From: a virus
Length of the DNA stretch: 55,077 nucleotides
Reading direction: 5' to 3' (one strand)
Virus record (IMG/VR): IMGVR_UViG_3300027676_000003
Span: 1 to 55,077 of that record
Of this stretch, positions 3,809 through 17,629 are shown in pieces; the first letter of the stretch is position 1; every line of letters starts with the position of its first letter. A model generated the notes under the pieces. That model had not been told where the DNA came from and ran no database searches. It saw only the letters and a list, made by a program, of their open reading frames with translations. The position numbers and the translations under genes were made by a program.

Positions 3809-4480
3809 TTAGGCGGCTTTCTTCTCCGCTGAATCATCCTTGAAAAGCAGCGCCCGCACCGCACAATCCTTAGCCTCAAGCGCTCGCTCGATAGGCCATC
3901 CGTCCATGATTCTTCTCCTGAACTTCAAATAGGAAACACCGCTACGGCGGGACCACCCTGCCATCGTGTCGGTTATTCCGTTAAATTCTATGAATCTGAC
4001 AGTCGATCTATTTGCCGCCTGCGCACCAGGAAGCGCCCAGCAACAATTGGCGGGATTGTATCCCTCCTCGCCCTTTTTTCGCTCAACGGAGTGGCGCGGG
4101 CTTGGCCTCGGCCCCATATCTCGGTAGAATACTTCAAAAGAATCAATCCACTCCTGGCATATGGTAATGCCCCTTCCCCCGTACCGATGATAAAAGCGGC
4201 TCTTCGGGTTTAGGCACCTCGTCTTCATGTGGCACCAAGCTCGGTATTCAGCGGTTCTTCTCATTCCATGAGTCTTGAACACCCGCGATGGCATCTCCAC
4301 GCGCCAGCAACCGCAGGACTTCGTCAGACCGCGAAGTAACGCGCTGCTATAAACCACGCTTTGTGTGCCGCAATCACAGAGGCAATTGAACCGCGTCTTG
4401 CTTCCGCAGCCGTTCTGGGCGCGAGAGAGCACTACAAGCCGACTGAAGCGCTGCCCAATAAGGTCCGATGGGTTGGTCAT
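3809..4480 (-). CDS. AP2/HNH-type homing endonuclease
   Basis: A 223-residue protein of the phage AP2/HNH endonuclease class. The N-terminal module has GQRFSRLVVL, CLCDCG and KSCGCW (zinc-knuckle or AP2-like). The catalytic part has YGGRGI and the hallmark GYNPANCCWA. Such free-standing nucleases are selfish and insert between or into phage genes. Its ATG overlaps the stop of the Acb2-like gene upstream (ATGA). The C-terminus is unusual: after the nuclease it reads LEAKDCAVRALLFK and a charged tail, closely matching the C-terminus of the adjacent Acb2-like protein (LLEGKDAAVRAVIFK). The nuclease gene thus seems to carry a second, diverged copy of the Acb2 3' end, as expected if it inserted into an acb2-like gene. 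Confidence 0.85.
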   Translation of the reverse strand: MTNPSDLIGQRFSRLVVLSRAQNGCGSKTRFNCLCDCGTQSVVYSSALLRGLTKSCGCWRVEMPSRVFKTHGMRRTAEYRAWCHMKTRCLNPKSRFYHRYGGRGITICQEWIDSFEVFYRDMGPRPSPRHSVERKKGEEGYNPANCCWALPGAQAANRSTVRFIEFNGITDTMAGWSRRSGVSYLKFRRRIMDGWPIERALEAKDCAVRALLFKDDSAEKKAA

Positions 4481-4674
4481 TCTTTGAAAATCACGGCCCT
4501 TACGGCTGCGTCCTTTCCCTCCAAGAGTTTTCTCAGCGCCGTCGATTTCTCAGGATTGTTCGGCAGTGAAGCTTCAAGGGTCTGCGCCAACTCGCGGAAG
4601 GGGGCGCTTACCTCCTGAAGGTGAGGTGGCAGGTGACCATAGGCAAAGAACTGCATCAGGTAGGATTTCGACAT
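4477..4674 (-). CDS. Acb2/Tad1-hairpin-like protein, probable anti-CBASS
   Basis: A 65-residue all-helical protein with the pattern I associate with the Acb2/Tad1 hairpin family: YLMQFFAYGHLPPHLQEVS, an LP.NPE turn, then ALRKLLEGKDAAVRA. Acb2 proteins are hexameric phage sponges that bind the cyclic oligonucleotides made by CBASS cyclases and so block abortive defence. The start is ATG 4674, preceded by AAGAGGAG; the longer open frame to 4803 reads into the tRNA and is rejected. It is immediately followed by a homing endonuclease gene that repeats its C-terminus. The family call is from memory; which nucleotides it binds cannot be read from the sequence. Confidence 0.75.
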   Translation of the reverse strand: MSKSYLMQFFAYGHLPPHLQEVSAPFRELAQTLEASLPNNPEKSTALRKLLEGKDAAVRAVIFKE

Positions 4675-4779: not shown

Positions 4780-4856
4780 TGGTAGCGGGGGCTGGATTCG
4801 CACCAGCGACCTCTTGGTTATGAGCCAAGCGAGCTACTAGGCTGCTCTACCCCGCG
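4780..4856 (-). tRNA. tRNA-Met (CAU), initiator-like
   Basis: A complete 77-nt cloverleaf on the minus strand with encoded CCA. Acceptor CGCGGGG pairs with CCCCGC, leaving a C1-U72 mismatch; the D stem GAGC/GCTC gives an A11-U24 pair; the anticodon loop is CUCAUAA; the T stem is GCTGG/CCAGC. The 1-72 mismatch and A11-U24 are initiator tRNA hallmarks. The anticodon stem is CTTGG/CCAAG, so it has two rather than three of the usual consecutive G-C pairs. It lies inside the phage operon between an Acb2-like gene and a small hypothetical gene, so it is cargo rather than an attachment site. Confidence 0.92.
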
Positions 4857-5124: not shown

Positions 5125-5468
5125 GCTTCGTCCCCTCCAAAGTTGAAACTGCTTTGCATGCCAAGCGCGGCGCAGTACGTCGCCAGCATATGCTCGGTCT
5201 CATCGCGCTCGGCAGGGTCGAGCTTACGGAGGGCGATTATTTTGCGGAGGGTCTTTACGTCGAAGCCTCCAGATTTCGCCTCGGCATATACCTCAGTGAT
5301 ATCGCTGGCGAGTTCGGCCTTTTCCTCATGCAGGCGCTCGATGCGTTCCACGATGGCGCGGAGCTGATCGGCGGCGATACCGCCAGTCCTCACCGGCTGT
5401 TTGCCTTCAGGGGAAACACGGTGGGGGGTATGGGGAGAGGTTTGGGGCGATGGAGAGGGTGTGCTCAT
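5121..5468 (-). CDS. DUF2312/GapR-like DNA-binding protein
   Basis: A 115-residue protein. After a Ser/Pro-rich N-terminal tail it carries the DUF2312 core: [35 protein letters not shown] and [17 protein letters not shown]. The Caulobacter member GapR is a nucleoid protein that encircles overtwisted DNA ahead of replication forks, so a role in replication of the element is plausible. The start is ATG 5468, which overlaps the GIY-YIG stop (ATGA); the longer frame to 5507 overlaps that gene. Confidence 0.88.
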
Positions 5469-6283
5469 GCGGCGGCCTTTCTTGCGTGCGAAAGCCAGCT
5501 CTCCCAACGCCTGCAGTCCATGACCACGAGTTTTTCTGCCGTATCCAAGAGCGGCAGGTAGTCCCGGCCGTCGCTGTCAAATCGGGCCATATAACTTTCG
5601 ATATAGTCATAAACCTTATTTGCAAGGCGCAACGATACGCCGGCGGCGCCCGGTGCTCGAATGGCATCTACAAAGCCGGCATCGCCTACCGCAGCTAGGC
5701 CGAACTCCTCCCGCTGGACGCGCGCGCATTCCAAAAACCGCTCAACAATGACTAGCAGCCCTTTATCATCGTTACGCATGCGGACCTTACAGATGAGATC
5801 GGATCGCCATTCCTCGATGAGAACTCGCTTCATTTGCTCGACCCTGGCGGCAACCGCACGCTGTTTCTCTTCCGCCTGAGCTGCAGCGGATGCCTCTTCA
5901 CGTTTCCGACGCTCCTTGCGCCCTCTGAGCGATTCGGTAACATTTGCCGGGACGATTCCGTTGTACGAGCGGTCCGCTTTGAAGGCATCTGAGATCAGCG
6001 TCGCCTCATGCATCTGCGCTTCTTCCTCGCTCCCGTACGTGGATATCACCGTGAATGTGAAGCTCGTTGCCCCATGGCGATTAAAGTCTTCCTGCATCTG
6101 CAGCCGAGGATGCTTGCCGGTGCGCAGCATCGAGCGGTGGGTGGAGAGGCGTGAGCGAACGTTGCGTGACCAGCCGGTATACGATTTTCCAGTCTCCGCA
6201 CAGATGATGGAATAGACGCCGATTGTAGAAGCAGGCGATGACGTCTCATTCTGGAAGCCTTCTAAATTACTGACAGCAATCAC
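5465..6283 (-). CDS. GIY-YIG nuclease
   Basis: A 272-residue protein with an N-terminal GIY-YIG domain: GVY at 22-24, YTG at 35-37, then an R-rich helix (RNVRSRL) and a HEATLI segment supplying the later acidic residue. The central part is a charged coiled coil ([17 protein letters not shown]); the C-terminal third is unassigned. It may be a homing or repair nuclease. It is the second gene of the minus-strand operon after the Cro-like gene. An inverted repeat GCCGC-GTT-GCGGC lies just upstream (about 6321-6333). Confidence 0.8.
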
Positions 6284-16275: not shown

Positions 16276-16450
16276 TTCCTTCCGTTGTTGCCGCTTTGCC
16301 CCCTAGCAGAACCGTCGCCCTGCGCAAGCACGCCTCCCCATCTTCGGCGGCGATAGTGGCCGCCTTGCAGACGGGTCCCGTCCGGCGAGGCTTGCTGGTG
16401 CGCCGTTTTCCGCTGCGGGGAGCGGTCAACAACTTCAGGAGTGAATATGC

Positions 16451-17629
16451 ATGACCGCCTATTACAACGAAATCGATCCATTCGCTGCCGCATGGCTCCG
16501 TCAACTCATAGCCGCCGAGCATATTGCTCCCGGCGATGTGGATGAAAGGAGCATTGAAGATGTCAAGCCAGATGAACTTCGACCTTACACCCAATGCCAC
16601 TTCTTCGCCGGCATCGGAATCTGGAGTTACGCGCTTCGCCTTGCGCGCTGGGACGATAGCCGTCCTGTGTGGACTGGTAGCTGCCCATGCCAGCCTTTCA
16701 GCGCGGCAGGCAAAGGTGACGGGTTCGATGACGAGCGGCACCTCTGGCCCGCATGGTTCCATCTCATCGAACACGCAAAACCGAGAGGCGTACCGATCTT
16801 TGGAGAACAGGTTGCGAGCCCAGACGGACTCGCTTGGCTCGACCTTGTTCAAGCTGACTTGGAAAACGCGTACCACACCCTCTGGCCGTTCGATCTCTGC
16901 GCTGCGGGCTTCGGCGCGCCCCATATCCGTCAGCGACTTTACTTCGTGGCAGAGCCCGAAGGTCAGCGATATCGCGCAAGAAACATACGAGGCCAAGATG
17001 GCGCGCAACGAACGTTTGAAGTCGGCGGGACAAACCAAGGGATGCGGATCTCCGAGCCTAGCGACCCAAGCAAGCTTGGCGAGTTGGCCGACACCGGATG
17101 CTTATCCGAGAGGGGGAGCGCAGGATGCGGAGAGCGCGGGAATGCGGCATTCAAGGGGAAAAGCGGATACTCTTACGGCCCAGGTAACGCATCTGGCATC
17201 ATGGCCGACTCCGATGGCCGGAACGCCAGCGCAGCACGGATACAATCAAGCGGGCAACACAGACAGCAGCAGGAAAACAGCGGCTCTATGCGGGGCCGAT
17301 CTTTCGGGATCGGGCATAACGGTGGACCAGAAGTGGAAGGGGCCGGCCCGGTTAACAGTCACTGGCGAGATTCTGATTGGCTCTTCTGCCGAGATGGAAA
17401 GTTCAGGCCAGTTAAATCCGGCACATTCCCGTTGGCTCATGGCACTCCCGCCTCAATGGGAGCACTCAGCCCCGCACTTCAGCGATTGGCAGAAGTGGCA
17501 GGACTTTCTAAAGACTCACTCAAAAGAGCCAAGTCCTACCGAGTCGGCAGCCTGCGCGGATTCGGGAACGGAATAGTTGCCGAACAAGCGGCAGCGTTCA
17601 TCACCGCCTATGACGGAGTGACAGCATGA
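16451..17629 (+). CDS. DNA (cytosine-5) methyltransferase, dual-coding
   Basis: A 392-residue phage C5-MTase. Motif I is [12 protein letters not shown], motif [14 protein letters not shown] (catalytic Cys in PCQ), motif VI is FGEQVAS in place of ENV, motif [12 protein letters not shown], and motif [16 protein letters not shown] at the C-terminus. The variable target-recognition region is low in complexity ([13 protein letters not shown]), and over most of the gene a second ORF lies in the +1 frame. AGGAG nine bases before ATG 16451. It would protect element DNA from restriction. Confidence 0.88.
16560..17576 (+). CDS. Overlapping gene inside the methyltransferase (+1 frame)
   Basis: A 338-residue frame entirely inside the C5-MTase gene. 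ATG 16560 is preceded by AAAGGAG at eight bases, an ideal ribosome binding site, while upstream TTG and ATG codons lack one. The product has recurring SWPTP motifs, [43 protein letters not shown] and [19 protein letters not shown] recall these as a recurrent phage protein pattern found overlapping such methyltransferases; that is memory, not a search. No enzymatic motif is evident and function is unknown. Confidence 0.65.

What the first reader, a model, noticed from the sequence alone, without database searches (positions are those of the whole stretch)
3809..4674. Homing endonuclease ends in a diverged copy of the neighbouring Acb2-like C-terminus
The HNH/AP2 endonuclease ends LEAKDCAVRALLFK plus a charged tail; the Acb2-like protein just upstream ends LLEGKDAAVRAVIFK. 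The DNA is also similar over about 45 bp (3838-3885 against 4482-4530). The endonuclease ATG overlaps the Acb2-like stop. This fits a selfish gene inserted at the 3' end of an acb2-like gene, regenerating a stop for one copy and capturing the original end as its own tail. It implies that anti-defence genes are homing targets, and the nuclease may be tethered to a nucleotide-binding helix.
Basis: seen in the sequence. Interest (0 to 1): 0.72.

Follow-up and report, generated by a model that had tools for sequence, protein, structure and literature searches.

The report
Homing nuclease that replaces gene ends
A selfish DNA-cutting gene in this phage appears to have landed in the tail end of a small phage gene, supplied that gene with a differently spelled replacement end and kept the original end as its own tail; nine phage loci with related nucleases show the same layout, previously described mainly in fungal mitochondria.

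Summary
The HNH ORF (4480-3809, minus strand) ends LEAKDCAVRALLFK and the small gene just upstream ends LEGKDAAVRAVIFK; no shuffle of 20,000 matches this. The DNA copies are only 27/42 identical, so this is not a recent duplication. In a scan blind to the tail, the 80 nearest relatives of the small gene carry the HNH-type tail (75/80 have A and 0/80 have G at the diagnostic residue). The native gene end therefore sits on the nuclease, and the gene carries a foreign or recoded one. The closest HNH found (59% identical, L158) sits at the same codon of an acb2-like gene, in the opposite orientation, with the native end again displaced. A survey of about 180 related HNH loci gave nine independent cases (six 3'-end, three 5'-end), hitting DNA ligase, NinX, MazG-like, macro-domain and other genes. 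Both copies keep the protein sequence, but their codons are essentially unrelated (18/67 identical). The 'Acb2' label is weak, anti-defence genes are not the special target, and the tethered-helix idea is not supported. Best reading: phage HNH homing cassettes that carry a cleavage-resistant end of the target gene, as fungal mitochondrial mORFs do.

The parts
4528..4674 (-). Native body (residues 1-49) of the acb2-like target gene
   Evidence: 46 and 80 relatives found; top relatives 33-36 of 49 body residues identical
4477..4527 (-). Replacement (foreign or recoded) 3' end of the acb2-like gene, ...LEGKDAAVRAVIFKE + stop
   Evidence: G at the diagnostic residue in 0/80 tail-blind relatives; 27/42 nt to the displaced copy; at most 30/42 nt to any relative
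4477..4480 (-). ATGA overlap of the acb2-like stop and the HNH start
   Evidence: sequence
3881..4480 (-). HNH endonuclease core (residues 1-200), phrog_374 HNH endonuclease
   Evidence: E 5.9e-61 to phrog_374; 59% identical L158 HNH aligned to A200, then diverges
3809..3880 (-). Displaced native 3' end of the acb2-like gene, in frame as the HNH tail (LEAKDCAVRALLFKDDSAEKKAA + stop)
   Evidence: Of 80 relatives, 63 resemble this tail more than the gene's own end, 14 equal, 3 less; AKDC in 52/80
4780..4856 (-). tRNA-Met immediately upstream of the target gene (context)
   Evidence: ARAGORN

Best explanation
It is a free-standing HNH homing-type gene that inserted into the 3' end of an acb2-like phage gene by end replacement. 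Inferred steps: the nuclease cleaves uninterrupted alleles at or near the codons for LL-E-A-KD; during repair the cassette (a differently spelled copy of the gene end, a stop, and the HNH ORF) is copied in; upstream it joins in frame, so the target protein stays intact with a new end, and downstream the original end is pushed beyond the nuclease, here fused in frame as an apparently functionless tail. The differently spelled end would keep the gene working, deny the nuclease its site, and prevent recombination between the copies. Shown: the layout, which end is native here and in two parallels, the shared breakpoint in two acb2-like genes, the codon divergence, and recurrence in nine HNH loci. 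Inferred: cleavage site, mobility, and immunity of the replaced end.
For: Tail homology. Native end on the nuclease by tail-blind family comparison. HNH homologues lack the tail; the closest one diverges exactly after residue 200. L158/L243: same target gene and breakpoint, HNH antisense; the gene's own end LRFLLQSKDAAVRAKIYK changes residue 52 (E in 76/76 relatives) to Q and residue 49 (K or R) to F; displaced FEAKDAAVRSRLYT beyond the HNH. Parallels: L180 (DUF7484; 15/16 aa, 33/48 nt), L201 (ATP-dependent DNA ligase), L157 (MazG-like; HNH tail matches homologues' VFIKESDPAYA better than the gene's own end), L298 (NinX; HNH tail SKLGDEVEIPEELMT* matches homologue ends, the gene has an aberrant extension), and 5'-end versions L055, L267, L282. 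Same-aa codons identical in 18/67 (about 23 expected at random) in six cases. In one six-frame test 7 of about 181 HNH loci scored z>4.5 against 2/422 control ORFs, neither control a gene-end duplication (Fisher p 0.004).
Against: No uninterrupted allele from a close relative of this phage was found; no phage record shares the locus. The window and L157 do not stand out in the broad six-frame test (z 3.2 and 1.9) and rest on targeted and family evidence. Codon saturation cannot separate an end imported from a distant donor from one recoded by selection. For L180 and L201 the native copy cannot be told apart. Nuclease activity and mobility are untested. The opposite HNH orientation in L158 means simple allelic homing alone does not explain all events.
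Confidence: 0.8

Rival explanations
1. An ordinary local tandem duplication of the acb2-like 3' end, with the HNH gene lodged between the copies and both drifting since.
For: Two copies of one gene end flank the HNH; tandem duplications are common in phages (own knowledge).
Against: Codons are randomised while protein is kept (18/67; L180 has 15/16 aa but 33/48 nt). A non-functional copy drifting alone should decay first, yet here and in L157 and L298 the displaced copy is the more canonical. The pattern recurs at nine unrelated genes next to this HNH family.
Confidence: 0.08
2. A functional fusion: the HNH acquired an Acb2-type helix for binding, regulation or tethering.
For: The tail is in frame and conserved in sequence; model helix at residues 216-222.
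Against: pLDDT 46-47 over the tail; only the second half of the second hairpin helix is present; no other HNH with this tail in IMG/VR; in L158, L180 and L201 the displaced end lies outside the nuclease ORF.
Confidence: 0.06
3. The gene's current end was recoded in place by selection against self-cleavage rather than brought in with the cassette from a distant allele.
For: Changes at highly conserved residues next to the breakpoint in both acb2 cases (A53G; K49F and E52Q).
Against: Does not by itself explain the displaced second copy; fungal mitochondrial mORFs show imported ends (PMC3630166).
Confidence: 0.2

Closest known systems
Fungal mitochondrial mobile ORFs (mORFs) with C-terminal duplication: Allomyces macrogynus atp6, Glomus sp. 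atp6/atp9/cox2/nad3 (PMC3630166)
   Same: Free-standing endonuclease inserted near a gene's 3' end; a divergent inserted C-terminus in phase with the host gene (63.5% nt between the atp6 copies); native C-terminus displaced beyond the nuclease and closer to relatives.
   Different: LAGLIDADG or GIY-YIG rather than HNH; organelle genomes rather than phages; here the native end can be fused to the nuclease ORF, 5'-end versions exist, and one acb2 case has the nuclease antisense.
T4-type free-standing homing endonucleases (seg and mob genes; PMC2988022)
   Same: Free-standing phage HEGs, some inserted inside coding genes (mobE in Aeh1 nrdA, mobA in gene 60).
   Different: The reviewed T4 cases lie between genes or split the host gene into two polypeptides; end replacement with a differently spelled copy is not mentioned in the passages read.
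Acb2/Tad1 hairpin family (PF24729)
   Same: Small helical-hairpin protein; weak profile match at residues 22-61.
   Different: Below Pfam's cut-off, no Foldseek match; function unproven.
SegB and anti-defence genes (PMC13096335)
   Same: A phage homing endonuclease coupled to anti-defence loci.
   Different: SegB amplifies loci; no amplification or specific anti-defence link is seen here.
Synthetic home-and-rescue gene drives (own knowledge)
   Same: A nuclease cassette inserted in a target gene with a recoded 3' end that restores function and resists cutting.
   Different: Engineered; here only the anatomy is shown.

Membership tests
HNH homing endonuclease (phrog_374) | Sequence match to the HNH profile | tested here: met
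   E 5.9e-61; no Pfam or NCBIfam match
HNH homing endonuclease (phrog_374) | Site-specific cleavage of the uninterrupted allele and mobility | not testable with these tools
   needs biochemistry or phage crosses
C-terminus-replacing mobile ORF (fungal mORF type) | Host gene keeps an intact ORF with a divergent C-terminus | tested here: met
   10/14 aa, 27/42 nt
C-terminus-replacing mobile ORF (fungal mORF type) | Displaced copy beyond the nuclease is the native one | tested here: met
   63 of 80 relatives closer to the displaced copy, 3 closer to the gene's own end
C-terminus-replacing mobile ORF (fungal mORF type) | Uninterrupted allele in a close relative | tested here: inconclusive
   relatives lack the HNH but are too divergent and not syntenic
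C-terminus-replacing mobile ORF (fungal mORF type) | Endonuclease class LAGLIDADG or GIY-YIG | tested here: not met
   HNH-type by PHROGs
Acb2/Tad1 (PF24729) | Pfam gathering score | tested here: not met
   17 bits against a cut-off of 27; 2 of 24 members at E<0.01
Acb2/Tad1 (PF24729) | Fold match to solved Acb2 | tested here: inconclusive
   model pLDDT 95.5, no Foldseek match at E<0.001; profile hit to 'Acb2 homolog 43' only at E 0.71
Acb2/Tad1 (PF24729) | Cyclic nucleotide binding | not testable with these tools
   needs a binding assay

The most novel reading that the evidence does not exclude
Phage HNH homing genes form a widespread class of natural home-and-rescue elements: each carries a recoded 3' or 5' end of its target gene, selected to keep the host protein working while destroying the cut site, so they can invade coding sequences of conserved genes harmlessly. 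The displaced native ends mark past target sites to within a codon.
Probability: 0.55. Interest if true: 0.85.

Novelty: new variant of a known kind. Interest (0 to 1): 0.72.

Why it matters
It would explain how free-standing phage homing endonucleases can enter coding genes without breaking them, a step usually attributed to introns, inteins or intergenic insertion. It gives a sequence signature (a protein-level, codon-randomised repeat of a gene end flanking an HEG) from which targets and cut sites of uncharacterised HEGs can be predicted. It also shows that chimeric gene ends in phages can be footprints of homing, and it is a natural counterpart of recoded-rescue gene drives.

Tried and rejected
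Chance similarity: rejected (0/20,000). Recent DNA duplication: rejected (27/42 nt). Tail as a general part of this HNH family: rejected. Other HNH-tail fusions by degenerate DNA pattern: none in IMG/VR. Relatives of the window: no near match to the locus; only a methyltransferase stretch is listed as matching phages; the RusA-like neighbour gave none. Acb2 fold by Foldseek: no match; HNH model gave no match. Uninterrupted E. coli allele of the APEC phage locus: none. The neighbouring GIY-YIG gene was tested for the same pattern: negative (z 0.3). L153 and L155, with HNH starts at or near the upstream stop, show no convincing end duplication. Literature: no paper joins Acb2 and homing endonucleases, and searches for phage end replacement found only the fungal case; the library lacks most subscription journals, so this is not proof of absence.

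Full report
OBSERVATION. On the minus strand, a 65-aa ORF (4674-4477) is followed by a 223-aa HNH ORF (4480-3809) with an ATGA overlap. The small protein ends LRKLLEGKDAAVRAVIFKE and the HNH ends IERALEAKDCAVRALLFKDDSAEKKAA. The protein match scores 56 (BLOSUM62), and none of 20,000 shuffles of the HNH reached it. The nucleotide match is weak: 27/42 identical with 6/14 third positions, no better than chance matches elsewhere in the window.

WHICH END IS NATIVE. I scanned IMG/VR with an alignment of the small protein's first 49 residues only, so the tail could not bias the result. In the 80 best loci the residue after LE is A in 75, S in 5 and G in none; AKDC, the HNH form, occurs in 52. Tail identity is higher to the HNH tail in 63, equal in 14 and higher to the window gene's own end in 3. 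The closest relatives end LLEAKDCAVRAQLFK (L002) and LLEAKDCAVRAVLFK (Bradyrhizobium phage, L051). The EGKDAA form is seen only in more distant relatives, found by an earlier scan whose patterns included that tail. The gene's body thus matches the end that now sits on the nuclease, and its present end is the odd one.

WHERE THE NUCLEASE ENDS. HNH relatives end at or near GWxxxRA(L) plus a short unrelated tail, or continue into another repeat of their own domain. The closest found (L158, 59% identical) matches through A200 and then diverges to FDPHL*. The acb2-like tail begins at residue 201.

INDEPENDENT PARALLEL IN THE SAME GENE. L158 (L243 is identical over the compared stretches) carries its HNH at the 3' end of another acb2-like gene, in the opposite orientation. 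That gene ends LRFLLQSKDAAVRAKIYK*, altering residue 52 (E in 76/76 relatives) and residue 49 (K in 73, R in 3 of 76, partly conditioned by the scan pattern). Beyond the HNH lies the displaced end FEAKDAAVRSRLYT*. The displaced copies in the window and L158 begin at the same codon (CTTGAGGCTAAGGAT and TTTGAGGCGAAGGAC), which points to the insertion or cut site.

GENERALITY. The flanks of related HNH genes were searched for protein-level repeats. Clear cases: L180 (DUF7484; 15/16 aa, 33/48 nt), L201 (ATP-dependent DNA ligase), L298 (NinX; native SKLGDEVEIPEELMT* now the HNH's own C-terminus, matching homologue ends), L157 (Escherichia phage APEC, MazG-like gp24; HNH tail VFIKESDPAYA as in Acinetobacter phage homologues), and 5'-end versions L055 (Xanthomonas phage LucasX, macro-domain gene), L267 and L282. 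With the window and L158 this makes nine independent loci. In one uniform six-frame test, 7 of about 181 HNH loci exceed z 4.5 against 2 of 422 control ORFs; of the controls, one is a 46/51-nt DNA repeat and the other a long low-quality alignment (Fisher p 0.004). The window (z 3.2) and L157 (z 1.9) fall below that threshold and rest on the narrower test (z 8.5 and 4.8) plus the family evidence.

SIGNATURE. In six cases examined codon by codon, positions encoding the same amino acid use the identical codon 18 times in 67, against about 23 expected for uniformly random choice. Protein is kept and DNA is scrambled. This fits an end taken from a distant allele, or one selected to differ; these data do not separate the two.

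MECHANISM (inferred). The nuclease cuts uninterrupted alleles near the gene end. Repair copies in a cassette of replacement end plus HNH, and the native end is left stranded on the far side. The replacement end keeps the protein working and removes the target site. Changes at highly conserved residues next to the breakpoint in both acb2 cases (A to G; K to F and E to Q) favour cleavage resistance. The stranded end has no evident function: it is disordered in the model and lies outside the nuclease ORF in several cases.

WHAT IS NOT SUPPORTED. The Acb2 label rests on a sub-threshold profile match (17 against 27 bits) and a profile hit to 'Acb2 homolog 43' at E 0.71; Foldseek finds no Acb2. Targets across the HNH family are varied phage genes, so the data do not make anti-defence genes a special target.

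KNOWN PRECEDENT. Fungal mitochondrial mORFs show the same anatomy: a divergent inserted C-terminus, an endonuclease ORF and a displaced native C-terminus, with 63.5% nt identity between the Glomus atp6 copies (PMC3630166). T4 free-standing HEGs are described as lying between genes or splitting genes (PMC2988022). I found no description of end replacement in phages in the held library, which omits most subscription journals. I therefore class this as a new variant of a known kind.

Noticed in passing
window 5465-6283 (-): A GIY-YIG homing-type gene lies about 0.8 kb upstream of the acb2-like gene, its stop overlapping the start of a GapR-like gene; no end duplication was detected around it.
   Followed up: partly
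window 4780-4856 (-): A lone tRNA-Met (CAT), the only tRNA in the window, sits directly upstream of the acb2-like gene.
   Followed up: no
window about 3374, 3460, 3735: A short motif (GCCGTGCCTA on the minus strand) recurs before successive small genes; seen by eye only.
   Followed up: no
window 16443-16956: The only stretch of the first 25 kb listed as matching phage records: a cytosine DNA methyltransferase, about 74-76% identical to Edwardsiella, Klebsiella and Salmonella phage genes.
   Followed up: no
L055 2322-2384 and 3256-3318: Xanthomonas phage LucasX: the same trick at a 5' end; the native start of a macro-domain gene is stranded upstream of the HNH and a recoded start lies at the HNH stop.
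   Followed up: yes
L057 2980-4248; L061; L062; L044: Other HNH genes of this family lie within about 2 kb of acb2-like genes without end duplication; possible recurrent association, not tested for enrichment.
   Followed up: partly
L022 3001-3570: An acb2-like protein fused to a longer C-terminal domain of about 130 aa.
   Followed up: no
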